From Owenia fusiformis (lineage: Eukaryota; Annelida; Polychaeta; Sabellida; Oweniidae): a stretch of DNA of 64,000 nt. Both the position numbers and the translations under genes were made by a program. The stretch's first letter is position 1. Each line of letters begins with the position of its first letter. Shown here piece by piece: positions 268 to 63,907 of this stretch. The stretch spans positions 23,203,248 to 23,267,247 of the forward strand of contig CAIIXF020000003.1 of assembly GCA_903813345.2 (NCBI GenBank), in the 5' to 3' direction. Under the pieces are notes generated by a model. It was not told the origin of the DNA, searched no databases, and saw nothing but the letters and a program-made list of their open reading frames with translations.

Positions 268-3200
268 CTGATTATTAGTGAAGACTCTGAAGATATAGAG
301 GTCAGCATCTGGTGCAAAGCCCATACATTCCCTATGACTAGAAATCACACCTGCTACAAATGTTCCATGGCCCAATCCTGGAAAGCCAGCAGAGAATTAT
401 ACACATATCAAATGAAAGCTTGTTCAATTCTGGATGTATAGAGCCAGAAATACTCAGAGAGCTCATTGTTCTCCCTTAGAGTTTTTCTCAAGTGGGTGCA
501 AAACTCTTATTTTAAAAATTCGTTTTTCATGATTTTTCTTATTTTCATGAGGGTGCAAATGGATTTTCAGGTGGGTGCCAGCCTGTTTTCAAAATCTCAG
601 ATGGGTGCTGTGCTCACTTGCTTTACTGAGCTCTTAATAATATAATGGGTTATATAGCAATCTGCTTCTCTCTTTTAATCCATGAATCATGCAAATTGAG
701 GTGATATACACAACCAAACATAAGTTCACAAATCATGTTCCAAATCATGATCAATCATCCCAACATTTGAAACATAGTTCCAGAATTGAATAAGCTTTAT
801 TAGAATGAAAAAATTATGGGGTCATGTTATCTAGGATTGACTTTGGATGGGGGATGATCATTATAAAACAACATGTACATTAAAGGAAAAATTTTCACAC
901 TTTTCACCCAAATCTACCCATTTAGTTTTTAGCTATTGATTAAAACATGCAACAAACTTACCATCATCCAATGTTTTCTCATTGGTCCAGTTGGTTCGGT
1001 CTTTGACACGCCCACTCTTGAAATGAGGATGGTCTACTGACAGTCCAGTGTCAAATATAGCTACCTTGATTCCTGCCCCTATAACAGTAAAGAGAAAAGA
1101 CACTAAGAACAGGTTTTCGTCTCAACAATAACTTTTATAATTACATGTATAATACACATTGTGGCATTTGTGAAGAATGTGAATATGTAAATACCTGTAT
1201 AGCCCATCCCCCATAGAACCTCTGCTTGGAGGGCAGTCGTGATCTGCCTGGGGATTGCTCGCAACAATTTACGATTTTTGTGACGTACTTCAGAGAACCA
1301 AAATGCACCAGCCTGTAAAAATAGTATAACGAGAGGTTTACAACTGAAGGGCCCTTTACTTCTGTATGTATATCTAAATATTTTGCTCCAAGGCATTTTT
1401 CCATTTTAACATTTGAACTACACAACTGCCATCTTTATACAAGTAAATAACTTACAAGAGAGGAAGGCCCCCTATGTGTCCTCGGTCTGGAAGAGTGGTA
1501 TTTCTGTGTCCAACATGGGTCTGCTTTGTCTGATTCATTGCAAGGTGGTCCCTTATGAGATTGCAAGTCTTCTTTATCAACTTCATTCCCTTCTGCTCTA
1601 TCTTCATCTGTTTCATTGACTGCAAAATCAATCTTTTTAGTTAATTATCAAATATTAATTCATCCCCCAACCACAGGGCTCGAAGATCCAGAATATCATC
1701 TTTCACTTTAGGAAGAAGGAGAAACAAGTTCTGTAGCCCTGTGTTCAGAGGAAATGAGACAGTAAATATTTAACACTACAGCATTATCACTAGATAATAT
1801 ATCAAAGTATCATTCTGATAATTGAACATATCAAATATCACATTGCTCAGCTGGTTACTTCGACATTATCAATCTATCCAATCTCAGTCCATCAGTTAAT
1901 AGTATGATATATGATAAACTGTATTTGCTATTACACTATACTCTGATATATCAAATGGAAAGAAGCAGACAAGTGAATAGAACTATACAGTGATCTCCCC
2001 AGCATTAAAGCAAGTGGGCACAGCACCCACCTGAGATTTTGAAAATAGGCTTGCACCCATCTGAAAATCCATTTATAAAAACTTGAAAATGAAAAAATCA
2101 TGTAAAATGGGCATATTTTGACCAATTTTGGTCTGAATTGTGAAAATGAGAATTTTGCACCCACTTGAGAAAAAAACTATATTTCAATATGCGAGTAACC
2201 AGTTTCTGTGGTGTGACTTATCATGTTAATTGTATGATTGTACACTTACTATATTTTAATGTGCGAGTAACCAGTTTCTGTGGTGTGACTTATCATGTTA
2301 ATTGTATGATTGTACACTTACTATATTTTAATGTGCGAGTAACCAGTTTCTGTGGTGTGACTTATCGTGTTAATTGTATATGACTGTACACTTACTATAT
2401 TTTAATGTGCGAGTAACCAGTTTCTGTGGTGTGACTTATGTTAATTATATGATTGTACACTTACTATATTTTAATGTTCGAGTAACCAGTTTCTGTGGTG
2501 TGACTTATCATGTTAATTGTATGATGCACTTACTATATTTTAATGTGCGAGTAACCAGTTTCTGTGGTGTGACTTGTCTTATATTGAAATGGTTCTCCAA
2601 TGCATCTATGCCATCTGCAATGTGTGACCCAATCTGAAAAGATGTAAAAATATTTTTCAATATCTGTTATTTTTGGTGAAGATAATGTGCTCTAGCTAGA
2701 TTGTAATACAATAAGAGAAACGATAATTGTACAAAGTAACTTTTATGCATTGCAAATAAAGACTCACATAAAAACTAAAATGTGGTAATATAGGATATAA
2801 TAAAATTGATATAATACATTAAAGGTAATTTGTTAGATAAATACTGCTATGCAGTGTAGTCTGAGTAAGTCTTTCATTGGTACAACAGAGATTAAATGTA
2901 AATAAATTTTATTTAATTTCATTAATTCTACTCAATGATAGATAACAAATAAAACTTGAATAAAACATTAAGTTGTCAACATCAAAAATATTCCCAAAAA
3001 CAATATTTCTACCCTGCCTATCGCTTTGTGAGTACAATATACACTGTATATACAGTACCTTTATTAGTTCAAAATCACTTGGGTAGTCTGTGGCCGGATT
3101 GTGACGGGGAAGCAAGTGCCAGGATGTAACTCCAGCTTCGCGTAAAGCAGCAGATATAAACCCAGCTCTTGCTGAGTTACTATAGTAACCCTTGAAGGCG

Positions 3201-4285
3201 ACTATAAACTCTGAAATGTGTAAATAACAGAAACTTTAAGCCCAACTTTAAGTATTTTATGAATGAAAGTGACACAGACTTTTTCAGCAGTACAATGATA
3301 TATAATCATATATCTGTATATAGTGCTGGTTTTAGCACCTTTCATTATGGTCATATTTGCTAAGTTATCCAAGACAGTTACATAATAATGATTAAGGTAT
3401 CATTTCATGGAGGACAAATTAGGCTTTTTACTGCAACCCTTGTATTTCAGAAATATTGCTAAGGATTCTAGTAATCTGCCTCTGAAATTGGATATACTTT
3501 TTTATGGACAACCTGTATGTAAGATTTACCTGAAGTTGAACACTAAGAAAACAAAAAATTGCTATCAAATGTATTTTTTATTGCGAACTTTGACTTGTTT
3601 AATTGCTATTTTTGTTCATAAAAACCAAAAGCAGAAATTTAAATTCATTATTAAACTATTTGCAGTTGATCCATTTGCTTACTATTGACAAAAATCCATT
3701 TAAAAAATCCAAAGAGCGAAACAACCATTTGAGTACCAAATTCTTGACTATATCGTTTAAATAGTCAATTGATCAATAACTTAATTTATTGCCAAAACTT
3801 TTCTGTTTTGCCATTTGAAAAAAATAACAAAACAACATGCAAAATATCACCACAATTTGTTACAGACGCAAACCGCTAATCGCTAACCACTGATCGCCAA
3901 CTGCCATCACAAAAATTGGAGACCATAACAATATGTCATTTAACTAAAACTCAATAAGTGTCAGCCTTATCATCAAAAGAATCTACACATTTTAAGCTTT
4001 TAAATCATTCAGTCCCAAGTAAATAATTAATTAATTATCTCATGGATGAATATAAATAAATGGTTGAATTCCTTTGTTAATGCGATAATCTTTATAATAT
4101 ACATAAATCCTACCATTTTCTACAATCTGGCTTGAGAATTCCACCTGCACTCTTTGCTGTCCAGTGTTTGTTCCATTCATGCATGACTGCCTTGAGTTCA
4201 CTTTAATCTTGGGCTGACTTGCATTGCAGTCACATAATAATATGTGAACAAATAGAAGAATAACTATCCATGTTTTCTTGTTCAT
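268..4285 (-). CDS. MBTPS1: Membrane-bound transcription factor site-1 protease (S1P/SKI-1), N-terminal 311 residues, partial
   Basis: Golgi subtilisin-like serine protease that, in known animals, cuts SREBP and ATF6 in the lumen. Seven exons keep phase: 4285-4114, 3210-3059, 2633-2534, 1619-1456, 1312-1195, 1078-962, 377-268; the gene continues past the left edge. The start chosen (4285) gives MNKK followed by a hydrophobic signal peptide; an upstream in-frame ATG lies at 4333. Recognisable family blocks are [32 protein letters not shown], the catalytic Asp in AIFDTGLS (about D245) and the catalytic His in [10 protein letters not shown] (about H278). The catalytic Ser lies outside the window. 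Two autoprocessing sites known from mammalian S1P are conserved: RTLK (137-140) and RKLL (210-213). Exon 4 has an acidic insert relative to human. The third coding exon's 3' end is tandemly repeated into the next intron (see 2165-2575). Confidence 0.95.
485..640 (+). repeat. Dispersed repeat, copy 1 of an inverted pair
   Basis: The stretch starting CTCAAGTGGGTGCAAAAC and ending near GGGTGCTGTGCTCACTTGC reappears in reverse orientation at about 2000-2175. It lies in the MBTPS1 intron upstream of exon 7. No coding potential is seen. Confidence 0.75.
2000..2175 (-). repeat. Dispersed repeat, copy 2 (inverted relative to 485-640)
   Basis: Reverse complement reads CTCAAGTGGGTGCAAAAT at its start and GGTGGGTGCTGTGCCCACTT at its end, matching 485-640. 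It directly abuts the last copy of the MBTPS1 exon-donor array, so the array ends where this element begins. Confidence 0.75.
2165..2575 (-). repeat. Tandem repeat of MBTPS1 exon-3 3' end plus its splice donor
   Basis: Six copies with a period of 69-74 bp. In the gene sense each unit carries about 46 nt of exon 3 (coding for [12 protein letters not shown]), the donor GTAAGTG, and about 25 nt of intron. The copy at about 2508-2575 is the real exon end; the other five lie downstream in intron 3. The exon tail is strongly conserved between copies; the lowest-coordinate copy has a degraded donor. Intron stop codons interrupt every unit, so this is not a coding repeat. Confidence 0.93.
3835..3935 (-). 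repeat. Short dispersed repeat family, copy 2
   Basis: Shares ACATGCAAAATATCACCAC, TTGTTACAGACGC and CACAAAAATTGGAGACCATA with the copies at 55 and 41640. Lies in MBTPS1 intron 1. Confidence 0.7.
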
Positions 4286-4744
4286 TATGCAAGAAGACCA
4301 AGAAAATCTTGCAATGTTTCTGGTAATGTCCATCCTTGTTTGCTAACCATACCCCATCATTGATTCATCTTTTTAGTTTCAGCATTATTTCTTGCTTCAT
4401 GTAGAATGAAATACTTAGTCATACTCTGAAAGTAAAGGAATTCTTGTCATAAGCTTATATATAATTATTTATGCAAACAGCGCATATAGTATAAACATGT
4501 CAACATTTCTGAAAATGACCTACTTTCAGACCTACTTTTGTTATATAGATCTTTTATCTTTGTGTAATTGCTAAGCACTCAATATTTTTCTATTGCTATT
4601 CATATTGGTCCTTTGGTATGTTGAATGTGAATTCAGCAATCTGAAGTTCACAACAACAAAAATTGTTATAAGCACGCAAGGAAAACAATATATGCCAAAT
4701 ATCCATAATTCTTTGCAACTGTGGAAAAAAGTTGATCATTCCGA

Positions 4745-23400: not shown

Positions 23401-26400
23401 ATTTCTGCGGCCAGTAGCTTTTCTACGCTCGCCGCAGAATTTCTGCGCTCTCATACTTTTGCAGTCACATTTCCCACGGCAGCCGCACGGTGAACTTCAA
23501 ATTTCTATTGATAAATAATAGTTTTTTTCATTTTATTTACATCAGGACAATTTATAAATGTTATTCAAAGTGCTAGGATGTAATATCAAATGAAAAGTGA
23601 TCGTGAAACATTGACAGATAATGATTCAATCTTGTTGAGCCAGTTGATTTCTACGGGGACCTCAGAAATGAACAAATATTATAACTCCGAGTTATCATTT
23701 CTACGGCGACCCTGCGGCCTGTAAAAATCTGCATACGCCGTACGGAGGCCGCAAGGCGAGCGTAGTTTTTCTACGCTCGCCGCAGAAATTCACCGATTTA
23801 ATTGTTCTGCGGTCGACTTGCGGCCGCCGTGCGACAAATGTGACTGGGGTGTTACATGTATGTATTATTACTATAATAGACTATTATAGATTATCAATTA
23901 TAACATTAATTATTAGGAAGAATACAAAATCATTTACTTTCTCCTGTTTCCTTTGTCAGGACAGCAACGCCTGAATTTGTTATTGCAGTATCTTGTAAGA
24001 AAGTCCGCCACTTTGTTCCTAATGGTTCCCCAGATGGCCTGCCACTGAAGTGCAAGTTATACACAGAGCTCAATAAATGCTATATTGATATCAACTTTAG
24101 CATTTGGGACATTTAGGACCTCTGATATATTATATCCTTTGAAGCCATTATTGTAGCTGATAAAAGATATAATTGTTCATCATGATAAACCATGACAACT
24201 CATTTCTTCTCAGCCCTGAGATGTTTCAGTTAAAACAGAAGGATGCTGTATCAAAATGATAACTGTTTAGAGCAAAAGACTTTAATAAATATTCATAATA
24301 TTAAATATCAAGCTATTTTTACAAATGATACAGTGATTGGGATAGTGTTTTCACAACAAAACAACTTACTAAACCAGCACTAGCTGTGGCAGTGAGCTGA
24401 ACTCCTCTACTGGCTTCATTCCTAGAATCTGTCAGAGAGATTATTTATTAAAATTATTTAATATGAAATAGTGACAAAGGCAATGGTGCAAAGGCTGCCA
24501 CTATAGCCTGAAACTGGGTAAGGTGAAATGTCATTATTGCTCTGTTTTAAAGCAGGTTTAATGTTTCTGTCCCTCAATTATTGTGTATTTTTGGTTTGAA
24601 GTAGGAAAGCCTTACGGTGAAATGTACTTACGTTGACAGCGTCTTCCGTACCAAGAATTTGTACATTGACATCGGCACTGGGATTGAGATTCTACAGCCA
24701 CACCTCCATTTTGACACTGGAAGCTTTCACAAGGATCCATCTTTTCAGTTGTTGTTACTTTTGTTGGCCTTTTTGTTGTTGTGGGCTTTTTTGTTGTGGT
24801 GGTAGTGGGTTTTTTCGTTGTTGTTGTGGGCTTTTTAGTGGTGGTAGTGGGTTTTTTCGTTGTTGTTGTGGGCTTTTTAGTGGTGGTGGTGGGCTTTTTA
24901 GTAGTGGTGGTGGGCTTTTTCGTTGTTGTTGTGGGCTTTTTCGTAGTGGTGGTGGGCTTTTTTGTTGTTGTTGTGGGCTTTTCCGTTGTTTTAGGACACA
25001 CATTAGTTCCGTCACCAGTTGCACCAACTATACAAAACAAACTTCACTCGTATATACATTGTTTTAGTCATGCATAAAGAAGTTCAGCAAAGGACCATGC
25101 CATGGTATATCTTTTAGTGTAAAAACTAAATAAAAACATTGATTAAGGGAGACACCATACCACATCTTCCGCAGTGAGCTGCACAATTTTTCGTCATAAA
25201 GGCGTAGAAATCATCACATGCATTAGCTCCATAACCATTGCAGTTCTCGTTGACATCAACACATGCATCTAAATCAAAACACAAAACAGCTGCAAATATT
25301 TTTTTTTAAATTATTGTACAGGGTGGGCCGAACAATGAATCCACCTTCATATTCAAGCCCTTTTTAATTCTTCCATTACTTGTGTATGATGATAAATCAC
25401 TGGGTAGATAATTCAATTTCCAATGAAGTGACATGTATGATAGAGAGAATAGATCAAAGGTGTTGACTTTACACAATGTTTTTACCATGGGGGTATTTCA
25501 TTGACGAACAATGAGGTTTTGGTGCAATATCACACCATATACTTACACCATATACTTACACCATATACTTACACCATATACTTACACCATATACTTACAC
25601 CATATACTTATACCATATACTTACACAATATCATTCTTTAATAATACAAGAATGTCTGATCAAGTGGCGCATGTCTTAAGTTGTCATCTTCTATTTCAAA
25701 CTATTCAATTTAAACAGATACAAATGGACACAGTGTTCTCCAGCAGACATAGCTAGACATAGCTAGACATAAGCAATACTTCAAATTAAATAGTACTGAT
25801 TTTTACTGGCCTACCCCATATGCACTGTAATTGTAATTTCCCATTTATTTCTTAGTGTTCACACTTTGTTCCAAATTTTCAATTATATACAGGCTGTGAA
25901 AATAAAACATAGAAAGATACAGCCCTGCGCAAGCTAGATCAGATATACCTCACATTACCTTGGCAACTGTTTCCCCACCATCCAGCAGGACAACTGCAGC
26001 TGCATTCATTAGTAACCGTGCCACAATTAGCACACTCTTTCCCACAGGCTGTAATGTTATAATGCAAGATTTAACATAATACCTATCTTCCAAGTAAAAT
26101 CCAGGCCTACAAATATCAGCAATGTTGTATGGAAAAGTCAGAAGGAACGAGGTATCTGGAGCTCTGGGATTGGAGAATGACAGAATGAGAATGATGTTAG
26201 ACATAAAATAAAATGCACAAAATCTAACAAATAGAAATAAATCAATAAGGGAAATACATAAAGAACAAATAGAAAAACTCAAAGACTTAGAAAAATACAG
26301 GTAAACGAAAAAATAGACAACAAACAAAAAGAAATAAGATAAGTGTGCAGAGAAAAATATGAATATAAAAGGAACAAATGAACCTTACTCATATTACAAT

Positions 26401-46900: not shown

Positions 46901-49900
46901 TAAAATATATGGGCAAATGTTTTAAATATGAGGCCAAATGTTTTAAATATGTAGCCCAGTGTTTTAAATGTGTCGTCAAGTATATTAAATATGTGGTCCA
47001 ACGGTTTAAATTTATGTGGCCCTGAATGTTTTCAATATGTGGTCCAATGTTTACCTGAGCTAGTTGCATAGGCATCAGTTGTTGTCTATTCCTGGCACCA
47101 GGTACTGCGCCATGTTGCAGTAATAGGTTAACAATGGATATATGGTGCCACTTAGCAGCCTCATGTAGGGGGGTATTGCCACGCTGGTTGGTTTGATTTA
47201 TGGACGCACCATGCTGGAAAGTGTTTTGCGAGTAATTAGAGTGGGAGAGATGGAGCCACTACATACTCCCTAATTTTTACTATAAATCATTGTTTCGGGA
47301 TTTTACACATGATAAGGTTATCTATTATCTACAACTTATTCATGTTTGAGTTTTTCCAAGCCGAAGAGTAAATAATTTGTGTCATAATAGAATTTCAATT
47401 TACAGAGATTTCAGTTTATATTGTTTGGAATGATGAAAAAATGTTTAATCAATTTACAGTTCACTTTCCTTGAGTTTATACTAAATAAAACGTGAGTCAT
47501 TCAATATTTTTTCATGAGTTATTTCTGTAGTTAATAGTTATACCTTTAATAGAACCTCAGCTGGACCTTCGCAGCCATTCAGGGCGCAGTAATGCAGGGG
47601 CGTGTCACCTCGAACATCTTTGATATTTATCTTAGCACCATGAATTAATAATAGAGAAACAATCTGCAAAACATAAATCTGATAATTTAAAGTGTGTAAT
47701 TTAAACTGCTTAAGTGGAATACCTTTGGTACCTCTTAAAAGTGTTTCACTTGGGAGGCGTTCCATTTACAGAGGGTCATTTAAAATAAGTCAATAAGTCT
47801 AAATTATATAGCTTGGCTGCGCCCTCAGCCAATTCTCATAACGTAGCAGATGGAGGGAGATTAACAATTATAAAGCACTTAGTAAATAAATGTTTAAGAA
47901 ATGAGTAATCTCACTTTAAGGTAGGCCCATTGCAAATAGGTTTGCACAATGACATCATAAGCAAACAGGTTCAAAAGTTGTCACACTGAGTCTACCTTAA
48001 AAACATTAAAAGCCTTGTAGCGTATACCTTTGGCATGTTCATTTGGCAAGCAAGATGTAATGCGGAACACTGACTTGTCCGAGTTTTTGCATCTATATCA
48101 GCACCTTTACGAATCAAGATGGTTGACATATCTTCGTAACCATGGAGAGCAGCAACATGGAGTGGAGAAAAACCATCGCTATTGGTTGAATTGATGTGGA
48201 GACCATCTGATGTCACAGAAGAGTTCCTCTGTAAATATAAATAAATTTAACCCCTTGAATACAACTGTAAACAAATTTTGGATTTTATGAGTCACAGGAT
48301 TTTGAAAGTGAGCCAAATGTAAAGGCCTTCAACTGTTTCGTAAGTCCAAAGAAAATATAAATAAAGACTGACTTGCAGTCATTTTAATAAAATGATGTCA
48401 ACATTTCTCTTTCATTCATTACAATGATCACTATTCACATTGAACTCTTTGAACAATCAGAATCCAGTAATTCAAATTAAATGAATTATTAACAAAACAT
48501 ATCAGAACGTAACTGCAGTGTTTGAGAAAATCCCTCAGCTCTGGTATATCTTTATTGCAAGGGTCAGCTGTCCCTTAAGCATGGAAACTTGGCTCCATTA
48601 CCATAACAACCATCAATACCTTCTATTTACTTCCTGGTTCCTTAATTTACCCTTATATAATATTTGTGTCTGAAAGCAAAAGTTATCAGACCCGTAGCCA
48701 GCTGTGCCAAGGGGGGTTCACTTTAAAAAAAAATTCCATGTGGGTCACATTTGACAAGCAAAAAATGGCCAAAACCACTTGAAAAGTGCTCATAAAAGTG
48801 AAACACTGCATGATTTTGAAATGTGGGGGGGGGGTTATACAATATATAATCTAATCTAATCAAATTATATCATTTTTCTGGCATTCTTATACAATTGTAA
48901 ATAATATGAGTTGGTGATTCATTCATTTCCATTTGCTAATTCTCCTTATTGTCAATTTCATGTTTTCACTTTCTTTTAATCAATAGAAAATTATTAAATC
49001 ATTCACAAAAATGAGCTAATTCTCTTTTGGAAAAAATGGAAGCTGTGTTCTTTCTGTTCAGTATTTAACGCGAGTTCTTCAAGAAATAATGTTCTTCAAG
49101 AGATAATGGGGAGGGGAGCTGATGCCAATATAGCCACTTAATTGGTCCACAAAAAATTCTCAACAAAACACACGGTGATCAAAACAAACAAACAAACAAT
49201 CAAATAACAAACAAACAAACAAACAATTAACATCAAAGACAAGACAGTGCTAATGCCAAAATAAATAGTCTTGCTTCAAAACCCTGGACCCCTCTCATCT
49301 ACTTTACTACTTGTTGAAGAAGAGGGGGGGGGGGGTCTTATAAGATAAATTATTTCACCGGGAATTGCTTCCTTCACCTCTGACTAAGCCATCTGCACTT
49401 GAGGCCCACATAGAGATAATATAGTACTATTTCATCAGTCTCCCCCTTGCTAATCAATATTACATGGGGAGAGATAACTGACAAGTCATGTCTTCAAACT
49501 AAGCCATGAAAAGTAAACGAAAGTCAGATTGTAAGTGACTAATATAAAACCCAATTTTGGATGTTATTTCAATGAGCAGGTTTTCAAGAAGATATATTTA
49601 GACTTTCTTGTAGCTTTCTAGCTTGGTAATATTTTCAAGGGGTTCTTTCCAGGTGCTACAAAGTCTCTGAGCATCTTCAATAACATACTGCAACCTTACT
49701 AAAATCTTCAGTGGGTGTTAATAATTCTCAATTTTGAAGAGCAGATTATCTCGGAGTGACAAGTCCAGTTGTTTTAATAGGAGATTATCCAATAATTTTA
49801 TCACTGATCATTCCAATATAAACAGTCAGACATCACAAAAGTACTGAGCTGGAAATTACAAGATAGTGCACGAGTGAGTGAAATATTAAAATGTGAAACT

Positions 49901-52900
49901 GAGATAAAGAGATTTAAGTGGAATTGCCATGGAATAAAGGCAGTGAAATGATGAAATCGAAATTTTCTAAATCAGCACTATACAGTACATAGAAAAACCA
50001 CAAAATCAGTGTGTAAAGGAGAGACAATAAAAGAACAAAGCCAACTGGCATAAAATGTTTTAAAATACAGGATTTTTCTCTCAGCTGTTTGAGGTTTTGA
50101 AATCAAGTAACTGAATATGATGGTAACAAAAATACTAATTCCTTTACTCCTCATAACCACACTACATATCTCGGGTAGGCCAAATAGACATAGAAAGAAT
50201 TTGAGACACCAACATGGAAAGAAAACGAGACACCAACATCTGAAAAATCCAAGAACCAAACAGGAACATGTATTAAAGCCATTAAAGCCAAGGATTAGAC
50301 TTCGCATAACCAGGGACTTTCTTCCCATTGATGATAAGACCAATACTAATAAAGAACAAAGGGATTCGGGACTTATATCTCCATGGCGTCCACTTGTAGG
50401 ACCAAAAAAACTGGTCCAAAAATGTGACAATGCTGAGAAGATTTTTAGCAGTGATGAAAAGGGTATTTCATTAAGGGAGGCTCAACGTAAGGCTTCTGCT
50501 TCTGGAACTGAGGTATATGTCATATCTTTCTATTATAAAGAGAGACGATCCGTTATGTCTTGTTTTCTCTGTTAAACCTAAGAATATTTTGAAAGTTTAA
50601 AAAAAGGGTGAGTGCATGTTTTAACATCCCATAAAAGGTCAAAGTTCGTTGTATTGAATCTGATCCGGGGTCACCTCCTTTGTCCATAAATAGGTTGCCT
50701 TATATAAAGCATGTTTGGAGACTTTCTGTGCCTTTTGATGGTCTGTCAAAAATAACTGTACCGACAAGGATTTCCCTCAAGGAGTGCCCTACAGGTTAAT
50801 ATTATGCACATATAGTACTAATATAATTGTTAATTTGTGAATACATATATGTAGTCTAGGAAGCACATACAAAAAGGTTGACATGCAGTAGGTACAGTAG
50901 GTGGCACATCAATGTAAGCAATTATTTCATAATGGTATGAATGCTAAAAACTTGGCTAGCACCTTGTAAAATAAATATTTTTTCAGAACAATATTTTCTT
51001 AACAGTAATTATGTCTTACTTAAATCATTGAACTTATAAGAATGTATTTCTAGGATTGGGTTAAATCAAGAAAACACAATGTTTTGGACCGGATGGATCC
51101 TTTGTACAGTATGAGTCCTAGTGTTGGCGGGAACAGGGGGCCAGCTGGACAGGTGAAAAATAGTGATTATGATGACAATATCTACAGTTTCTTCACATGT
51201 AATGTATGTGAAACGTGAGTACCAAACTATGCAAAAAATATATGTGAAACATGAGTACCAAACTATGGAAATTATATATGTGAAACGTAAGTGCAATAAG
51301 TACAAAAATATGCAATATAATTTATGTGAAATGTAAGTACAAAACTATGCAATGTAATCTACATGTAAATGAATCATTAGTACAAAACTATGCAATGTGA
51401 TCAATGGGATACGTGAGTACAAAACTATGCAACATAATCTATGTGAAACGCGAGTACAAAACTATGCAATGAAACTGTGTGAAATGTAAGTACAAAACTA
51501 TGCAATACTAGAAAAACAGCAACTCCACGGAGTAGCAAATCCCACCGAACAAAACATGTTTTGATAAGAAATATAACACAATTTTTAAAGTATATGTGAA
51601 GTTTATATTTATATTTATTGAATGCTGGTGATAGTAACTGCTAACATTGAAAGATGTCATGGTTTATTGGAGGAATCAGGATCAACGCTAAAGAAAAGGT
51701 AGCGGCCATTTAAAATTTGAGCCAAATCCATCCACTGGTATTTGAATTATCAAAGATTGTGTTTTTATGAAACATGTTTGCCATTTTGAAATTCAGCAGT
51801 CATATTTAGATTTCTTCTTTAGCAGTGCTCCTACGTCCCAATGTATCAGCATATACAATTTAATCCAAATCCGTCAACTGGAACTTGAGTTATCAAGGAT
51901 TACATGTTTAATGAAAAATGGGGGAGATTTCGATAAATAGCAGCCACCTTGAAAATTTCTTCTCAAGCAGAGCTCCTTTATCTCTAGGCATCAGTATATA
52001 AAATTAGAACCAAATCTGTCCATCTGGTATTTGAATTATCAAAGATTACCTTTTTTTATGAAAAATGGCCGCCATTTTGAAATATGGTGGCCATCTTGAA
52101 AATGTCTTCTTGAGCAAGGATCCTTTGTACCAAAGCAACAGCATATAAAATTTGATCCAAATCCATTCAATGGTTTTTGAGTTATCAAAGATAACGTTTT
52201 TTAAGAAAAATGGTCGCCATTTTGAAATATGGTGGCCATCTTGAAAATGTCTTCTTCAGCAAGGCTCCTTTGTACCAGGGCAACAGCATATAAATTTGAA
52301 CCAAATCCATCCACTAGTATTTGAGTTATCAAAGATTATGTTTTTTTCGAAAAATGGCCGCCATTTTGAATTTAGTGACCATATTAAAAATTTCTTATCG
52401 AGCAGAGGTCCTACGAACGGACCGACGAACGGACGAACGGATGGACGGTCGGCTTTTCTATATACCCCTCGAACTTCGTTCGGTGGGATAATAATCTACA
52501 TGTATATGAATCATTAGTACAAAACTATGCAATGTGATCTATGGGATATGTGAGTACAAAACTATGCAATGTGATGATTGTAAAAACATGAGTACAAAAC
52601 TGTGCAATGTGATCTATGTGATTCGTGAGTATTAAACTATGCAATGTGATGAATGTGAAAAATTGTGTTCAAGACTGTGTCATGTGATGCATTTGGACAT
52701 ATGATTACGAGACTTTACAATGTGATTGATGTGAAAAAATGAGTACAAAACTATGCAATATTATTATTCAATGCTTTATTGTACTAAAAATCCCTTTCGG
52801 GTGAGTGTACAGCAAATAAACATGATAAAATAAAAATTAAACTATACATACAATTACAATAACATACAATGCAAATTTTACATGGCATATAATGACAATA

Positions 52901-55900
52901 TAATGTATGTGAAATGTGAAATGTGAGTACAAAACTATGCAATATAATATATGTGAAAAAATGAGTACAAAACTATGCAATATAATGTATGTGAAAAAAT
53001 GAGTACAAAACTATGCAATATAATATATGTGAAAAAATGAGTACAAAACTATGCAATATAATGCATGTGAAAAAAATGAGTACAAAACTAAGCAATGTGA
53101 TGTATGTGAAAAAATGAGTACAAAATGATGCATCATTGCAAATAATCTTTACTGTAACAATCCCCTACATTGCAATACATAACTACTGAGACTAAACTTT
53201 TTCACAACTGTCTAATACCACAATATCACCAGAAGTAAAAAGTAGTTTTGAACTAGATAAAAATTTAAACCAGGAGATCTCTAAATAAGCTATATAAAAT
53301 ATCTGCCTTTAATGATAAGTTCCTAGATAACCCACTTTGCTCAAACATCTTGCCAGCTACCAAAAGCTAGAAATTAGCACAGGATTTACACTGATTACTC
53401 TAGCAGATACATTTTGAAACATGTCAGTAACTACAAGGCTGGTTTTCCAGCTATTTCTAATTCTCAAAGCTATACCCAACTGTGAAACAAATGGATCATT
53501 ATCTGAAACTTCTATGGAAACTTTACTTAACAGTACACAAGGAATTTTTCATAGTACAAAACATAATTCAACAATTGAATCTGCAAGATATCAAATTAGA
53601 TTAGAACAATTTTCAGAGGGGTACTTTAGAATATTTAGTCATACAGGCAGGGGTAGTAGGCCTGGTCAAGGAGGAGATAGGATACATGCACAGCAGGGAT
53701 TTATACCTGTTCGATGGACAGGGAGACATAGTAGGTAGTGAGGTAGCACCGAAAAATGTACCCGCTTCTGAACAAATTGAAATTACTTGTTTCTTATGTA
53801 TTTTTATGTGATACTTCAGAAAATCTTTGTCTGACGCGCCATATCTGGGGCAAAAGTTGTCAAAATTGGGTTTTTGACCCTAAAAAGGAAAATTACAGGG
53901 GGTACATTAACATCATTGAATAATTCATTCAGGTAGTCTTCAATCATCATAATGATTTTATTGAGAGTTGATGAGATCATTTTAAGGTAGTATGCAAACT
54001 TTCAATGGTCTGTCACTCATGGTTGCCATGGAAACCACAATTTTTGCTGAGAAAATCCTTAATTTTGGTAAAACCTGTACCTGTACATAATATAGAATGT
54101 GGATTATTTTTCAAATCAACAGATATCAGAACATTTTAGCACTCTAAAAATCACCAGGGCTGTCCAAACATTTGTTTAAAGAGAAAGAATATTGCAATTT
54201 ATATGCCTGGTAAGTGTCAAAGACCATACAATTACATAAGTGGTCAAAAGTGGGCGTCGCCCTCATAATAGTAGTTGATTGCCATTCTCTATAAATACAG
54301 AGTTTTACTTGACTTTTGAGATACATTTATATTGAATTTCTTTGGTCATACTTAATATCAAGCATTTTTACATCTAAGTGTTATAGTTATTGCATGGGGA
54401 TACAGGGGGAGGGGGGAGGGGGGGTAGTAACAGAATTGGGAGGGGGCAGAGCTTATCAGCCTTAAGTGTAAATATCATCTACATGGTTCTAGATTTCATA
54501 GGGTACAGCTTCTGGGTCTTATTATATTCATCTCAATATAGAAGATATTAGAATTTACATGGTTGGTAAGTGTCAAAGACCATAGAATTACACATGTGAT
54601 CAAAAGTGGGCGTCGCCCTAATCATAGTATATGGTTCATTCTCTATAAATACAGAGTTTAACTTGACTTTTGAAGTACATTTACTTAAAAACATCTTTGA
54701 TTTATACTTAATGTCAAGCATTTCTGGTAAGTTATATATGTACATCTAATTGTAATAGTTATTGTCTGGGGGTGGAGGAGGGGGGGAGAGTAACAGAATT
54801 GGAAATGGGCAGAGCTAATAAGCCTTAAATGTAAATCTCATTTATTTAGTTCTGGATTTCAAGGGGTGCATCTTCTGGGTCTTCTTCACTTCTGGGTCTT
54901 CTTCATCTCAATATATGGGATATTCCAATTTACATGATTGGTAAGTGTCAAAGACCATACAATTACATAAGTGATCAAAAGTGGGTGTTGCTCTAACAAT
55001 AGTAGATAATTTATTCTCTATGAATATGGAGTTTAACTTGACTTTAAGATTTATTTTTTAAATTAAAACTTCTTTGATTACATTTAGTATTGTAATATTT
55101 ATTCCCTGTGGGGGGGCAAGGGGGGTAGTAGCAGAAATGGGAGGGGGCAGAGCCAATGGCCAGTCAGTCTTAAGTATTAATATCATAGTTTGATCATTTT
55201 CATTCACCTCCCAATGTTAATATATTAACAATATCATGTGGGAGAATATACCACTACACTTGCAGATTTGAGAGTCATTCAGTTGAGTGTATCTATATGG
55301 CGCTCCACCTTTGCCTTTTAAAAAGGTGCTATTGCTATTGCCCCTTCTGCATGGCACTTCATCTGTGAATGTGTGAAGTGCTAGGAAGGCTGCATATATG
55401 TCAGGGTCTATATTGGAGGAAATACCACTGACATCAGTCTTCATTTGTTTCCAACTCAAATATCCAGCAGCAGACTTTGCTGTATTTGCTTTTTGTTTTC
55501 ATCATCATACAAGAACTAATTCCAATCTTTAGGGACTCATGTTTTTCTACCTTAAATAGGGCAAGGTGTCCCTCCCCTCTTTCAGGTTCCTTTATAGAAT
55601 TTTTGATGTAATTATCACATACAAAAACGAATCAATCTGCAATTGTAGAATCTTGAAACAGTCTCCGCCAGATCCAGAAACAAAACTACCTTTCAAGTTG
55701 AATTATGGTTTGGGATAGTTGGGGTTTGTTTTCCTTATGACTTGTATACATTTAGAAGTTTTCTTTTTCTTGCTGGGTTCTATTACAAATTTTGGTCCTT
55801 TCCCTTTGGCACTTGTGGGTACATGTTCATGCATAGGGATGCGTTTCTCTGTTCCTGCAAGAAGTCCAGTCAGTGTTCCTAGAGCCCAAGGCACAGGGCT

Positions 55901-58900: not shown

Positions 58901-61900
58901 TGATAGCGTACATTTTCTTAGCATTAACATGTACATGCTCAGGACGTATCTTTGATCGATTTTTATGGCAGAGTCGACTTGGTATTAATCCATGGAAATT
59001 GGACAAATCTATCGAAACAGATAAAATATTTCAAACCAGTAAGAAAGGAGTAACATTGAAAGATGCTATGAGGAACATTGACATTGGCAGGAAACACAAT
59101 AAGATCAACCCAAAATGGGAAAGAAACAACCACTGTTGCCAGACGTAAGTCTACCACCAACAATAGCGATATGGGTTAGGTTAGATACAGTAAAACCTGC
59201 CCGATGGAATACCTCTCTGTAGGGAAAACCTATGAACAAGGAATGCTTTTCAAAAGAACCAAATATTTTTCCATTGACTTAGATGTTAACGGACCCTCTC
59301 TGTAGGGAAAACCTGTGAAAAGGGAACAAGGAACACTACTTTGGGGCAAATTATGAAAATTCACCTGTGATCAAGGAATTTGGAATATTGGTGACACTGT
59401 ATATTCCAGTTTTTCAGAGGTGTGAAAGTCTTAAGCCAATATCTGATTCTAAAATGCTTGGATTAATATGAATGGGATTAAGATAAGCCAATTGTTCACA
59501 GGATGAAGCATCCCACCCACTGTTAATTACCCTGATATATTTTAACTAATACTAATCTGTTCATTTCTTATTATCATGACTCTAATTCTTCCTTTCAACA
59601 AACCCAATTACATCTAATCAGTTGTGATAATCTAGGGACTGGCACAATTGTTTTATGGAGATAATAGATAAGTACATGTACATTTGTCATGTTGCGCCAA
59701 ATCTCTTTAAATAGTTTACTGATCCAAACCTCTAGATTATCAATTATATAAAATGGGGTTGAAACTTGAAATTAAGTTCTTACATGCCTTTATACATACA
59801 AATATGCTTATTCGACAAGTTTGAGTTTGCTGAAAGTGCGGCCCCTCTCTATAGGGAAAACCTCTGAACAAGGAAACTTTCCTCCAGTCCCAAGAGCATT
59901 CCCTGTTCGCAGGTTTTACTGTAATTATGTATTGGTACAAAGCTGTTCAACAAATGTATTGGCAATGGTTTATATTATGTTTTTCATAGGTTTTATGTAT
60001 TATGTTTTATTTTTCATTGGTTTTTTCTTGATTTCTATCACCTAACAAGTAATGTATCCTGGCAAGTAATTGTATCTTGGAAAGTATTGTGCCTTGATAA
60101 GTAAAATATCTTGGTTAGTATTGATAACTAAAGTGTCTTGGTAAGTGCTGCAGCTGTATCTTGATATATAATAAGCGACTCATTAAGTACAAGTAATATC
60201 TGAAAATAAGTGGTCTTGTCTTGGTAAGTATCTTGGTAAGTAATATATCTTGATATATACAATAAATATGTCTAGGCAAGTAAAGTATGGCAAATTATGT
60301 TTGTAAGTAAGTAATGTACCTGGCAAGTAATATACCCTAGCAAGTAATGAGTCTAGGAAAGTAATATACCTTGGCAAATAATGAGTCTAGGAAAGTAATA
60401 TACCTTGACAAGTGACATATCTAGGCAAGTAATGAGTCTAGGCAAGTAATGTATCTTGGGAAATGACATATTTTGGCAGGTAATGTATTTTGGCAAGTAA
60501 TGAGTCAAGGCAAGTAATGTGCTTCGGCAAGTAATGTATCTTGGCAAGTAATAGGCAAGTAATGAGTCTAGGCAAGTAATGTACATTGGCAAGTAATATA
60601 TCTTGGAAAGTAATAGGCCTTGGCAAGTAAAGAGTCTAGGCAAGTAATATACATTGGCAAGAAATGTATCTTGGCAAGTAATAGGCAAGTAATGAGTCTA
60701 GGCAAGTAATGTACATTGGCAAGTAATATATCTTGGAAAGTAATAGGCCTTGGCAAGTAAAGAGGCTAGGCAAGTAATGTGCTTTGGCAAGGAATGTAAC
60801 TTAGGAAGTAAGAGGCCTTGGCAAGTAATTTGCCTTGAAAAGAAATATGATTAGTAATACAATCAACAGAAAACCTTTTGAAAACCAAACATAACATTTC
60901 ACCAATCAAATGATATATAAGTGCATGAACAATGAACTTCTAAAGAATTGGAAGAGGATGAAATATCAGTACTAATTATATTTCTCATTTAATGGTTACT
61001 GATTGATTTTACTGATTAATTGATTGACACAATGATCAATTAAATTGATTTATTAATTAATTGACATAATGATTAATTGATTGATTTATTGATGATTGAT
61101 TGATTCACAAAATGATTGATTTATTAATTGATTGATTAACCAATGCATTCTACATCTTTTTCAGTCATAGCGAAAATCGTAAGATAACACACATAAAATG
61201 GCCACCATTTTCAAAATGATCAGTCACTAGCCAAATTTTCATAAGAAAGTGTAATAAATAGGCACATACAGTATTATGTTTCAACAAAATTGCACACACG
61301 TACATAAGACAGTGTGCCATGCTTATGAGTACTCACATATCAAATATGAACAATATTGTAGCAAAAAACGTAAAATAGCGTGTTAAGGCCACCATTTTTC
61401 AAGATGGCTGCCATGTGGTTCTTAAATATCTACATTTCTAGCTTTATTAATGTCCTAAATAACTTTTTCACATTAAAAACATATCGCTATTACAGTTTTA
61501 TGTATTGTACCTAAATTACTGTAAAATCAGCACTAAAATTGCTGCCATTTTTAAATGAGTGGCCATTTTGAAAAATGGCTTTTGAGCAAAACTTCTACCC
61601 CCATAGGGCTTATCTGTACAAAATATGAACAAAATCGGGCCAACAGTATTTTAGTTATTGCCCCGACGGACAGACAGATGTATGGATGGATGGATGGTCG
61701 GACAGATGCATTCCCTATATCCCTCCGAACTTCGTTCGATAGGACAATTATGAATCAGCATATAGGCACATATTTTCTGTTTTCAGGAAGAAATTCTTCA
61801 TCACAGAGGAGTTCTTGACAGATACTAAAACCAACCGTCAACTTCATCTGGTTCAGTTAGGACATCTCAACCCTCCAAAATACCAGAATATACAGATTGG

Positions 61901-63907
61901 GCTGTGCAAGTAAGAGGTTTTGCTTATAATTGGGCTATGTATACATAACTTATATTTGGGCTGTGTAAGTAAGGGGGTTTACTTATTTTTGAACTGTGTT
62001 AGTAAGTAGTTTTACTTATTATCAGACTGTGTAAGTATGGGATTTTACTTATAATTGGGCTGTGTAAAAAAAGGGTTTTTACTCAATATTGGGCTTTGCA
62101 AGTAAGGGGCTTTACTCATAATTAGGGTGTGTTAGTCTAGCATGATATCCTGAATTTTTCTGTTATTAAGTATGGAAATACAATTGTAATAATAAAATGT
62201 TCTTTTCTTAATTTCAGAAATAAAGGTAGATGTTCAAATGGCGGAAAATGCACAGAAGAGACAATTGTACATTATGTATTTGTACACACAGACAGTGGGA
62301 CTGGCTATGAATTTGCACCTATACACCTACCTGGATACTGCTCTTGTAAAAATACATTCAAATAAATGGACAGAATTAACATTCAAGAGTGTATTTTATT
62401 TTCTTCGATGACACACCTGCCATTGATAAAGATGAGGCAGGACCGTAGCTAGGATTTGCAAAGGGGGGGGGGTTCAGTTTTCAAAAATTTCCAAGAGGGT
62501 TCACATTTGACAATTTTTGCCCAAATATGGCTAAAATCACAAGAGAAGTGCTCAAAATTGTGAAAAACTGCATGATTTTGAAAGAAGTTTTGGCCAGGGG
62601 GGGGGGGGCTTAGCCCGAACCCTGCGAACCCCCCTGGCTACGGGCCTGTGAGGGTGTAACAGAATCAGAAACCAGCGGGTCACAAAATAAGAAATCATGG
62701 GTATTATAAACAGTCATGGTTGAAACTGATTCAAAATTTGTCCAGCAAGATGTATTGAGGACCATCAGTATTTGACAACCTGTAACAATCGTAGATCACC
62801 ATGTGAGCCAAAAAAGTACCATTGACAATGATGGGAGAGGAGCGGGAGGGTTGTTACAGGTACTAGGGTTGTCACAGGTGCTAGGTACCAAGGGGTCACA
62901 AAATTGAAAATTATATAGATTATAAATACTTATTGGTAATATGAAATCCAAAGACTCTTGTTCTGCATGTTAACAAGGAATATGTATTAGAATACAACTA
63001 AATAGTAGATCCTGTTTGCTACAATGCCTACGATTTGTATATTCAGTAGGGACCTCAATTATTTTATAAACTGTGACACACATTCTTATATGAATCTTAA
63101 TGTACAATTGGAGTAGCAATGGAACACTTAAAACAATGTTGGAAACAGATGTATATTTTTATTTGAAAATAAATCTATAAATAATTAATTTTAAATGCAT
63201 TATATTTCATTTTGCATGGGATTTAAAAAGCACATGAAAGGCAAAGCTATTAAAATTATACTTTCTTGTCATCCGAGAAAACCCTCAGAGTTACTATGCT
63301 AGTCAAATGCCTAATAAATCAGTATATTACAAGTGATACATCAGAGTATAGAGCCCCATTCTGTTAAACTTCCTTATTAACAAGACAAACCCTAGTTTAG
63401 TAACAAGATGAAGGTCTCGTTTTTACTCAAAAAACGAAAGAAGTAGTTTTTGACATCTCCAATAAGAAGAATCTAATTTATAATACTTTGGGTCCATCAG
63501 TATATAACCTGTTTACCACTGTGAACTTTCCCCTTTGTCTAAATCTAAATTTCATTAGATTTTCCCACAATTGTACATGCAATTGTTTTTCCTTAACTAA
63601 TTCTTCTCTTGTTTTATGTTCAATGTTTTAGCCCTGTATTTTTAAACTGCACAGTGACATCTTTTTAAATGAAATAAAAACCTGACTGAAAAAAGTAGAA
63701 TGAACTAAACAGAAATGTTTCCACAATCATTAATTGTTCCCATACTATATTAACTTGTAAAATTGTTTTTAACAGACTTACCTTCTGCAATGGAATGCAT
63801 TTAGGACACTGACATAATGGATGGCAAAGTTCCCGCGTTGCATCAAAGCATTCATCATCAGAGTCCTCTATATCTGAATCTATATCCCACCCGAGATGAT
63901 ATTTCAC
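43983..63907 (-). CDS. ANKRD27: Ankyrin repeat domain-containing protein 27 (VARP), C-terminal 518 residues, partial
   Basis: VARP is an endosomal VPS9-domain Rab GEF and retromer/Rab32/38 effector. The window holds the last six exons, all in phase: 63907-63782, 48228-48028, 47663-47544, 47213-47055, 46853-46745, 44824-43983; the VPS9 part lies beyond the right edge. The first exon has the Cys motif HPLCQCPKCIPLQK, characteristic of VARP. The next three encode ankyrin repeats (DGFSPLHVAALHGYED, DVRGDTPLHYCALNG, QRGNTPLHEAAKW), followed by an acidic, Ser-rich, probably disordered 280-aa tail. All internal ankyrin exons are phase 0. A possible poly(A) signal on this strand lies near 43787. The intron between 63782 and 48228 is 15.6 kb and contains a cytokine locus on the opposite strand. 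Confidence 0.92.
45095..45165 (-). repeat. Short dispersed repeat family, copy 6 (fragment)
   Basis: Contains AAACATCACCACCTGGTATG and TTTGCAACAGATGGCAAACG, partial matches to the family. It borders the 25-bp minisatellite. Confidence 0.55.
45175..46030. repeat. 25-bp minisatellite with higher-order structure, about 33 copies
   Basis: The unit GCACCAATGGGTGATTCTAT plus TTAAT (24-26 bp) fills most of the last ANKRD27 intron. A variant-unit pattern beginning ATGGATGATTCTAACTAATG at 45178 recurs at 45432, giving a higher-order period of about 254 bp (ten units). The unit contains no donor consensus on the host-gene strand. Confidence 0.95.
46890..47054 (-). repeat. 22-bp tandem array starting at an ANKRD27 splice donor
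   Basis: In gene sense the intron begins GTAAACATTGGACCACATAT and continues with about seven degenerate copies of the theme AACATTTGGCCACATATTTA. The first unit starts at the donor GT itself (47054). Exon bases are not included. Confidence 0.85.
48688..48840. mobile_element. Truncated GTAGCCAGG-family MITE
   Basis: Begins CCCGTAGCCAGCTGTGCCAA and shares CACATTTGACAA, GAAAAGTGCTCA and CTGCATGATTTTGAAA with the full copies at 5206 and 62438. The right terminal repeat is missing after the poly-G tract. Confidence 0.78.
49186..49230. repeat. AAAC microsatellite
   Basis: Repeated CAAA/AAAC tetranucleotide interrupted by TCAAATAAC. Confidence 0.85.
50117..51214 (+). CDS. Spatzle-like cytokine N-terminal unit 1 (two exons, signal peptide and pro-region)
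   Basis: Exons 50117-50512 (132 codons, phase 0) and 51054-51214 (ends in phase 2). There is a signal peptide (ILIPLLLITTLHISG), then a very basic pro-region. The stretch KIFSSDEKGISLREAQRK resembles KIFQTSKKGVTLKDAMRN of unit 3 (58888), so the two are paralogous. The last codons TCNVCET align with NHCCQT at the end of unit 3 exon 1. No cystine-knot exons follow before unit 2; the phase-2 donor at 51215 is compatible with the knot exon at 61787. It could be an alternative first module of one gene or a truncated paralogue. The donor-exon end is amplified downstream (51200-53130). Confidence 0.72.
51196..51520 (+). repeat. Tandem repeat of cytokine unit-1 exon end plus donor, block 1
   Basis: Unit of about 37-40 bp: AATGTATGTGAAAC (exon end) joined to GTGAGTACAAAACTATGC (donor and intron). 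The first copy is the real exon/intron junction at 51214/51215. About eight copies follow, many with GTGAGTAC or GTAAGTAC retained. Confidence 0.93.
51535..52493 (+). mobile_element. Dispersed repeat with internal 150-bp units, inserted in the donor array
   Basis: Bounded by AAATCCCACCGAACAAAA and CGTTCGGTGGGATAAT, short inverted ends. Inside are about five units with CAAATCCATCCACTGGTATT, TTATCAAAGATTA and ATGGCCGCCATTTTGAAAT themes, then GGACGAACGGATGGACGG. A relative lies at 61160-61750. It separates blocks 1 and 2 of the exon-donor array. Confidence 0.82.
52494..52765 (+). repeat. Exon-donor array, block 2
   Basis: About six further units with ATCATTAGTACAAAACTATG and GTGATCTATGGGATATGTGA themes, continuing the array after the inserted element. 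Confidence 0.88.
52770..52905 (+). repeat. Inserted sequence between array blocks 2 and 3
   Basis: About 135 bp unlike the array, including TCCCTTTCGGGTGAGTGTAC and A-rich tracts. Probably a retroelement fragment; not classified. Confidence 0.5.
52906..53130 (+). repeat. Exon-donor array, block 3
   Basis: About six homogeneous units TATAATGTATGTGAAAAAAT + GAGTACAAAACTATGCAA. These copies lost the donor GT (AATGAGTAC instead of ACGTGAGTAC) and are more uniform than block 1, suggesting later local expansion. Confidence 0.92.
53421..58007 (+). pseudogene. Spatzle-like cytokine N-terminal unit 2, exon split by a 4.2-kb transposon
   Basis: From ATG at 53421 the frame encodes a signal peptide (LVFQLFLILKAIPNC) and about 105 residues to RWTGRHSR, where a transposon begins (53736). 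Immediately after its right end (57982) the sequence AACTATAGATACAACTGTTG resumes, coding NYRYNCCKT and then a donor GTAAGT at 58008. This matches the end of unit 3 exon 1 (NNHCCQT, donor GTAAGT) in sequence and in phase 2. The unit therefore looks like a third paralogous first exon disrupted by insertion. The frame across the junction cannot be restored with certainty. The left fragment alone could still use a donor-like GT at 53735. Confidence 0.65.
53736..57982. mobile_element. 4.25-kb element with long inverted terminal repeats
   Basis: Ends TAGTGAGGTAGCACCGAAAA and its reverse complement at 57982-57963. The outer 440 bp (to about 54160 and 57555) are inverted copies. Further inward each arm carries three direct units of about 350-400 bp with AAAAGTGGGCGTCGCCCT, a poly-G tract and CAGAGCTxATxAGCCTTAA. 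The middle (55.2-56.6 kb) has only degraded open frames on the minus strand, such as WKQMKTDVSG. Long TIRs recall Polinton/Maverick or foldback elements, but no diagnostic enzyme was recognised. A target duplication is not evident. Confidence 0.85.
58888..62365 (+). CDS. Spatzle/Trunk-like cystine-knot secreted cytokine, 175 aa
   Basis: Three exons in phase: 58888-59144, 61787-61909, 62218-62365 (TAA). Signal peptide ILIAYIFLALTCTCSG, basic pro-region, then a C-terminal domain with cysteines spaced HCCQT, IGLCK, GRCSNGGKC and LPGYCSC. Spatzle-family ligands have a similar tail: one Cys after a beta strand, a Cys-Ser, a Cys before an aromatic strand, and a final Pro-x-x-C-x-C; IL-17-type knots were considered but fit less well. 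In insects this family activates Toll or Torso receptors; the receptor here is unknown. No clear furin site. The stop codon overlaps AATAAA (62361-62366). The gene is nested in the large ANKRD27 intron on the opposite strand, and its second donor is the seed of a tandem array. Confidence 0.8.
59185..59930. repeat. TACAGTAAAACCTGC-type elements (two copies)
   Basis: One begins TACAGTAAAACCTGCCCGAT (59188) and contains CTCTGTAGGGAAAACCT units up to about 59400; another at 59835-59930 ends CGCAGGTTTTACTGTAATTA. Same end family as 42671-42768. Confidence 0.7.
60040..60835 (+). repeat. Degenerate minisatellite GGCAAGTAATGTATCTT in cytokine intron 1
   Basis: Some 40 units of 17-20 bp. A longer motif (AGGCAAGTAATGAGTCTAGG to CCTTGGCAAGTAA) is duplicated at about 60550-60635 and 60680-60770 with a period near 130 bp. 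Many units read CTAGGCAAGTAAT, resembling the consensus AGGCAAGT of minor GC-AG splice donors on the cytokine strand. Confidence 0.9.
60985..61140. repeat. ATTG/TGAT simple repeat
   Basis: Imperfect ATTGATTGATTTATTGATG runs; low complexity, no function seen. Confidence 0.8.
61160..61750 (+). mobile_element. Dispersed repeat related to 51535-52493
   Basis: Shares the ATGGCxGCCATTTT theme, the GACGGACAGACAG and GGATGGATGGTCGG tract, and the end CCGAACTTCGTTCGATAGGA with the copy near 52.4 kb. It ends just upstream of the acceptor of cytokine exon 2. Confidence 0.75.
61893..62145 (+). repeat. Tandem repeat of cytokine exon-2 end plus donor
   Basis: Seven to eight units of about 33-35 bp. Each unit joins the exon end ATTGGGCTGTGCAA to the donor GTAAGAGG/GTAAGGGG and TTTTACTTATA. 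The first unit is the real junction (61909/61910). At least three later copies keep AAGTAAG; others are decayed (GTGTAAAAAAAG). Confidence 0.93.
62438..62648. mobile_element. 211-bp MITE, GTAGCCAGG family, TSD TGAGG
   Basis: Left CAGGACCGTAGCTAGG and right CCTGGCTACGGGCCTG terminal repeats, poly-G tracts at both sides, flanked by TGAGG at 62433-62437 and 62649-62653. Lies about 70 bp downstream of the cytokine stop codon. Confidence 0.92.
62654..63780. other. Right part of the ANKRD27 intron
   Basis: AT-rich sequence without recognisable exons, repeats or RNA genes; ends at the donor of the ANKRD27 exon at 63782. Confidence 0.6.

What the first reader, a model, noticed from the sequence alone, without database searches (positions are those of the whole stretch)
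2165..62145. Recurrent tandem arrays seeded exactly at 5' splice sites (four introns, plus two related cases)
In four introns of four different transcription units (2165-2575, 34640-36095, 51196-53130, 61893-62145) the real exon 3' end with its GT donor is the first unit of a tandem array running into the intron. Units differ in sequence and length (about 33 to 74 bp) but all have the same architecture: 14-46 nt of exon, donor, short intron piece. A fifth intron starts a 22-bp array at its donor, and a sixth holds a GTAAGTAT array. With roughly 30 introns visible this is a striking share. Unrelated sequences argue against one mobile element; a donor-linked duplication process (for example slippage at U1/R-loop sites, or selection for extra U1 sites to suppress early polyadenylation) is inference.
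Basis: partly seen in the sequence, partly recalled or inferred. Interest (0 to 1): 0.9.

Follow-up and report, generated by a model that had tools for sequence, protein, structure and literature searches.

The report
Tandem arrays spanning exon-intron borders
In this animal genome the junction between a gene's coding piece and its intron is quite often copied many times in a row into the intron, at both ends of coding pieces and not only at the start of introns; the same oddity was named 'mirages' in amphioxus and offers a natural test of how cells choose among identical splice sites.

Summary
The arrays are real. Three of the four donor cases hold (S1P/MBTPS1-like, CAP-domain and a Trunk-like gene); the one at 51.2 kb is uncertain. 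The 'fifth' array starts at its donor without copying exon. The 'sixth' is an ordinary intronic array.

The proposed link to donors fails outside the window. I tested 303 protein-domain exon rows from five families across the genome. By my curated count, border-spanning arrays (unit 20 bp or more, TRF score 80 or more) occur at 18 acceptors and 5 donors. Spread evenly at the density of intronic arrays, about 4.5 would be expected. So borders carry about five times too many, chiefly at acceptors (p about 5e-11); the donor excess alone is weak (p = 0.08; 0.03 if one borderline case is added).

At a donor the real site is the first copy, at an acceptor the last. Extra copies mostly keep an intact GT or AG, with no sign of selection on it.

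This matches amphioxus 'mirages' (PMC3087553, PMC3902484). New here: another genome, by size and 12 chromosomes probably the annelid Owenia fusiformis, and prevalence: 7.6% of sampled exons. Best explanation: tandem duplications that arise often in and around exons survive only where extra copies fall into an intron.

The parts
2165..2575 (-). Donor-type border-spanning array, S1P/MBTPS1-like gene; 72-bp unit, 5.6 copies; real donor is the first copy, exon end 2534, GT from 2533
2534..2633 (-). S1P exon whose 3' end is the first unit of the array
1456..1619 (-). Next S1P exon ([11 protein letters not shown]...); the intron runs on about 550 bp past the array, so the array is not the whole intron
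34640..36095 (-). Donor-type border-spanning array, CAP/GLIPR1-like gene; unit about 33 bp, diverged; exon end 36069; interrupted by an inserted element
34907..35926 (.). Fold-back element (423-nt arms, 95% complementary) lying inside the CAP-gene array
51196..53132 (+). 37-38-bp array in a gene that looks Trunk-like (name by eye); donor GT at 51215 possible but unproven (TGA in frame, no next exon found)
61893..62145 (+). Donor-type border-spanning array, second Trunk-like gene; unit about 33 bp; exon end 61909
62218..62365 (+). Following exon (NKGRCSNGGKCTEE...CSCKNTFK stop) that fixes the donor of the array at 61.9 kb by frame
46903..47052 (-). 21-bp array that begins at the donor of an ankyrin-repeat exon (exon end 47055) without copying exon sequence
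25532..25631 (-). GTGTAAGTATATG array inside an intron; not border-spanning

Best explanation
These are 'mirage'-type minisatellites: tandem arrays whose unit straddles an exon-intron border. A segment covering the end of an exon and the start of the neighbouring intron part (or the reverse at an acceptor) was duplicated in tandem and then expanded. At a donor the first copy stays the real site, at an acceptor the last copy does; the other copies lie in the intron and are tolerated because they leave the coding sequence whole. Shown here: the anatomy, occurrence at both borders, and an about five-fold excess over evenly spread intronic arrays. Inferred: that tandem duplication is frequent in and around exons and only border-spanning events survive selection; that splicing uses the exon-side copy (the choice that leaves the protein intact in the cases read); and that the extra copies have no function.
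For: Anatomy and homology of the junctions. Curated sample of 303 exon rows: 18 acceptor-spanning and 5 donor-spanning arrays against 4.5 expected over 606 borders, p = 6e-10. Each of the three sampling rounds shows both kinds (12 acceptors and 3 donors of 191 exons; 5 and 1 of 84; 1 and 1 of 28). The automatic count of the first set, before any curation, already shows the acceptor excess (10 against 1.4 expected, p = 2e-6; 9 without the spurious L024, p = 2e-5). Kinesin gene: the last of 18 units of 159 bp is the real exon start. Unit lengths are multiples of 3 no more often than chance (6 of 20), so the copies are not generally read as protein. Units are mostly exonic (median 51.5 exonic and 24 intronic nt), as expected if exon-like DNA seeds the arrays. 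Two paralogous SNF2-family exons (L144, L146) share the array with 3.9 and 2.1 copies, showing length change. No sign of selection on splice dinucleotides of the copies.
Against: No transcript data, so use of the exon-side copy is inferred. The bias to acceptors (18 to 5, p = 0.011) is not explained by the bare survivorship model. Arrays in loci without a border array are only slightly richer in G+C than introns (0.360 against 0.328), so base composition is at most part of the reason for the excess. The counted cases were settled by eye: from the automatic list of the first set I struck out L024, moved L117 to the edge class and added L010, L028 and L111; in the second set L128 was added by eye. 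If the baseline density were three times too low, the total excess would be weak (p = 0.012). A UCH-domain gene (L189, not counted) has 150-bp units that stay in frame for 666 codons, so there the copies could be read as protein.
Confidence: 0.72

Rival explanations
1. Donor-linked process: duplication seeded at U1 or R-loop sites, or selection for extra U1 sites.
For: Three or four donor cases within 64 kb and none seen at acceptors there; five donor cases in the sample, six with the borderline L117 (p = 0.03 over expectation); one further array starting exactly at a donor (L007).
Against: Acceptor arrays outnumber donor arrays 18 to 5 in the sample; the donor excess alone has p = 0.08; no sign of conservation of GT in the copies; the border's place within the unit varies (exonic share 0.35-0.90).
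Confidence: 0.05
2. A splice-site-linked or acceptor-linked duplication hotspot: something about the exon border itself (transcription, chromatin, the polypyrimidine tract) raises tandem duplication there.
For: Acceptor excess p about 5e-11 over evenly spread intronic arrays. Border arrays are somewhat more uniform between copies than other arrays in the same loci (median match 94.5% of 20 arrays against 90% of 38), but this is not significant (p = 0.06).
Against: The border is not at a fixed place in the unit: test against uniform placement p = 0.07, with a skew towards exon. Nothing shows where the break occurred.
Confidence: 0.2
3. Chance: arrays fall anywhere in non-coding DNA and the reader noticed those next to exons.
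For: Tandem arrays are common here (67 TRF rows in 64 kb); donors alone nearly fit this (5 observed, 2.3 expected).
Against: 23 border-spanning arrays against 4.5 expected, both kinds seen in each of three sampling rounds.
Confidence: 0.1
4. A mobile element carries or triggers the arrays.
For: A dispersed 190-bp element at 1983-2175 touches the S1P array; 39 other places at 91-94% identity were listed, a lower bound.
Against: Units at different loci are unrelated. In the loci held the element was found in the window and six loci, of which one (L004) carries a border array, and there it does not touch the array.
Confidence: 0.03

Closest known systems
Amphioxus 'mirages' (Adh3, TnC, globins BflGb6 and BflGb9, PGBD5)
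   Same: Minisatellite-like tandem duplications of exon-intron borders; units of 10-160 bp; both 5' and 3' borders; many copies with AG/GT signals; 6 and 3 units in two haplotypes of BflGb6 (passages of PMC3087553 and PMC3902484).
   Different: Described gene by gene in lancelets in the passages seen. Here another genome with 12 large contigs, 23 of 303 sampled exon rows, and a measured excess over intronic arrays. RT-PCR in the globin paper suggested undisturbed splicing; nothing of the kind could be done here.
Intron gain by tandem genomic duplication (AGGT model)
   Same: Tandem duplication of exonic sequence with splice signals (passages of PMC3443670).
   Different: There the duplication makes a new intron lying between two AGGT copies. 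Here the intron already exists; in the S1P case it runs on for about 550 bp past the array.
Ordinary minisatellites
   Same: Unit length, copy number, divergence between copies.
   Different: Found at exon borders about five times more than an even spread predicts.

Membership tests
Amphioxus-type mirage | Repeat unit contains an exon-intron border | tested here: met
   23 sampled cases and three window cases
Amphioxus-type mirage | Real border is the terminal, exon-side copy | tested here: met
   By homology or reading frame; actual use not shown by RNA
Amphioxus-type mirage | Occurs at 5' and 3' borders | tested here: met
   5 donors, 18 acceptors of 303 exon rows
Amphioxus-type mirage | Copy number unstable | tested here: inconclusive
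   Paralogous exons L144 and L146 have 3.9 and 2.1 copies; no haplotypes or reads available
Amphioxus-type mirage | Regular splicing not disturbed | not testable with these tools
   No transcripts held
Intron gain by tandem genomic duplication | Array makes up the whole intron, both exons in the repeat | tested here: not met
   S1P intron continues about 550 bp past the array and the intron at 61910-62217 continues about 70 bp past its array; other introns not examined for this

The most novel reading that the evidence does not exclude
Exon borders, above all acceptors, are hotspots of tandem duplication in this genome, so that thousands of genes carry ladders of nearly identical decoy splice sites that the spliceosome passes over in favour of the exon-side copy.
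Probability: 0.25. Interest if true: 0.8.

Novelty: new member of a known kind. Interest (0 to 1): 0.6.

Why it matters
Mirages were reported, in the passages I could find, from a handful of lancelet genes. If about 8% of exons in a distant animal carry them (23 of 303 rows here), they are a natural experiment on splice-site choice: up to 18 nearly identical sites in a row (the kinesin case), of which only the exon-side one appears to leave the protein whole. They also give a large supply of duplicated splice signals, the raw material proposed for new introns, and a direct way to measure tandem duplication at genes.

Tried and rejected
Donor-only seeding: rejected by the acceptor arrays. Genome-wide pattern count of paired CAGGTAAGT: 150 matches against 88 for the reversed pattern, but in the 100 places listed the matches pile up in a few large arrays and one 35-bp form found at many places, so not used as evidence. 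Selection on decoy splice sites: per-base counts looked conserved (97.5% against 89.4%), but counted by column the difference goes. A mobile element at array ends: not general. Frame-preserving units: no. Base composition: weak. Greater uniformity of border arrays: one search gave 95% against 88%, but its border group held some other arrays and used another unit-length limit; the cleaned comparison gives 94.5% against 90%, p = 0.06. COX1 search, which might have helped to name the species: no match.

Rows dropped before counting. Myosin: 12 of 92 rows (a tandem exon cluster on C9). Kinesin: 24 of 144 rows (17 further copies of one array, 7 weak or interrupted rows); the row kept for that array is its first copy, and the real exon is the last copy, one of the 17. 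119 of the 128 merged regions were fetched, drawn at random; these hold 191 of 200 exons. SNF2: 4 of 73 rows dropped (copies of one array); E1-E2 ATPase: 0 of 15; all 50 regions fetched. PI3/PI4 kinase: 0 of 28. Of the UCH family (73 rows) only the array at L189 was read, after it was seen in the listing, and it is not counted; L190 and L191 were fetched and not analysed. Curation: from the automatic list (4 donors, 1 array starting at a donor, 10 acceptors) I struck out L024 (domain match ran through an intron), moved L117 to the edge class (only 4 nt of exon) and added L010, L028, L111; L128 was added by eye. L007 and L117 (array edge within 4 nt of the donor), L132 (13-bp unit) and the window cases are not in the 23. 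L144 and L146 are paralogues; counted once, acceptors are 17 (p = 4e-10).

Splice-site scoring used approximate frequencies recalled from general knowledge; borders of counted cases were set by eye from homology, reading frame or both, and so were some of the lengths used. Exon counts are protein-domain match rows, not annotated exons; some rows cross a short intron.

Full report
Window and genome. The window lies in a 498-Mb genome of 525 contigs, C3:23203248-23267247. Contigs C1 to C12 (lengths) are 32 to 62 Mb and sum to 477.5 Mb, leaving 20.8 Mb for the other 513. Owenia fusiformis has a 505.8-Mb assembly with 12 chromosome-scale scaffolds (passages of PMC9977687; PMC9539403), which fits; this is inference, and a COX1 search gave nothing. 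Lancelets have 19-20 chromosomes (recalled), so this is not expected to be one.

The observation. TRF lists 67 rows in the window. At the S1P-like gene the exon ends ...RTLKY plus one base at 2534 and is followed by GTAAGTG; the 72-bp unit holds about 42 nt of exon, the donor and about 30 nt of intron, 5.6 copies. A joined translation aligns with membrane-bound site-1 protease across this junction. At the CAP-domain gene the exon ends ...GHYTQ at 36069; a joined translation aligns with GLIPR1 across the junction; the array is diverged and split by a fold-back element. At 61909 the exon ends ...GLC plus two bases and joins in frame to NKGRCSNGGKC at 62218. At 51.2 kb the donor is not proven: the frame runs into TGA within GTGAGT and no convincing next exon was found. 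The ankyrin-gene array starts at its donor but copies no exon. The GTAAGTAT array is intronic.

Genome sample. To test the claim without choosing by arrays, I took exons as matches of protein domains: Myosin_head and Kinesin (191 exons fetched), SNF2 and E1-E2 ATPase (84 exons), PI3/PI4 kinase (28 exons). Arrays were found by TRF with one setting (unit 20 bp or more, score 80 or more) and counted as border-spanning when, read by eye, the unit held at least 8 nt of exon and the splice site. First set: donors L027, L060, L065; acceptors L002, L004, L010, L028, L062, L071, L082, L094, L101, L103, L111, L116. Second set: donor L133; acceptors L128, L139, L142, L144, L146. Third set: donor L186; acceptor L183, taken as one array with L184. 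Total: 5 donors and 18 acceptors of 303 exon rows (7.6%). The automatic list of the first set differs: 4 donors including L117, one array starting at a donor (L007), 10 acceptors including the spurious L024.

Expectation. In the first two sets there were 26 intronic array edges 9-250 nt from exons in 127.9 kb, mean unit 45 bp, which gives 4.1 expected border-spanning arrays in 550 borders, or 4.5 in 606. Two of those 26 edges belong to arrays at a neighbouring exon's border (L103, L117), so the baseline is if anything slightly high. Observed 23: p = 6e-10; acceptors 18 against 2.3: p = 5e-11; donors 5 against 2.3: p = 0.08; donors against acceptors: p = 0.011. With L117 as a donor: 6 donors, p = 0.03 over expectation and p = 0.023 against acceptors. 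The automatic counts of the first set alone give acceptors p = 2e-6, donors p = 0.05, and no significant asymmetry (p = 0.18). With the baseline doubled the curated total keeps p = 7e-5, with it tripled p = 0.012. The cases were settled by eye, so these p-values carry that uncertainty.

Anatomy of the arrays. At acceptors the last copy is the real exon start: in a kinesin gene on C2, 17 upstream copies of a 159-bp unit (about 127 nt exon, 32 nt intron) precede the real exon, which alone runs on into further coding sequence. In a gene of the VPS34 type (by reading; name recalled) a 79-bp unit is present from about 27219384 to 27219881 and from 27220334 to 27220806 on C10; the 452 bases between were not read. 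At donors the first copy is real. In 20 sampled arrays the unit has a median 51.5 nt of exon and 24 nt of intron, the exonic share runs from 0.35 to 0.90 and is not clearly different from uniform (p = 0.07), and 6 of 20 units are multiples of 3. Copies mostly keep the splice dinucleotide: 5 of 198 bases changed in 99 copies of 24 arrays (21 of them sampled, 3 in the window; L111, L183 and L186 not included, L117 included); by column 5 of 48 against 162 of 912 elsewhere, p = 0.24. Border arrays are slightly more uniform between copies than other arrays in the loci (94.5% against 90%), not significantly (p = 0.06).

Interpretation. Tandem duplication that covers a border leaves one intact border and puts the rest into the intron, so selection tolerates it, while the same event inside an exon is removed. 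That explains why arrays can exist at borders, and the exon-heavy units suggest that exon-like DNA seeds them often. It does not by itself explain why acceptors exceed donors. Two ideas, both untested: duplicated donors are purged more because the intron-side copy of two equal donors tends to win (recalled from classical splicing work), or something at acceptors promotes duplication. Which copy is used is inferred from the coding sequence; the exon-side copy leaves it whole in the cases read, with a possible alternative in a UCH-domain gene whose 150-bp units stay in frame for 666 codons.

Known or new. The anatomy is that of amphioxus mirages (passages read in PMC3087553 and PMC3902484; the original Adh3 paper is cited there and was not read). 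Searches for mirages or border-spanning minisatellites elsewhere listed no paper that looked like a report from annelids or a genome-wide survey; apart from the passages named, I saw listings only, and the library holds open-licence papers only. I therefore file it as a new member of a known kind, with prevalence, excess and acceptor bias as the new points.

Noticed in passing
L189 (G000:C9:8171498-8174400): UCH-domain gene with an acceptor-type array of 150-bp units, 11.2 copies, whose frame stays open for 666 codons, so the copies could be read as protein.
   Followed up: partly
G000:C9:37986009-37994334: Twelve diverged tandem matches to one stretch of the Myosin_head domain (profile about 18-84); looks like a cluster of alternative exons.
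   Followed up: no
window 1983-2175: Dispersed element of about 190 bp, 91-94% identical at 39 other listed places in the genome, touching the distal end of the S1P array.
   Followed up: partly
window 34907-35926: Fold-back element with 423-nt arms, 95% complementary, lying in the CAP-gene array.
   Followed up: partly
window 50111-51215 and 58853-62365: Two neighbouring genes for short secreted proteins that look Trunk-like (name by eye; no Pfam match), each with an array at or near a donor.
   Followed up: partly
window 24773-24990: Coding 21-bp array giving KPTTTT repeats in a minus-strand exon with cysteine-rich neighbours.
   Followed up: no
L144 and L146 (G000:C2:7806874-7807838 and 7836239-7837188): Paralogous SNF2-family exons about 29 kb apart share an acceptor array with 3.9 and 2.1 copies.
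   Followed up: partly
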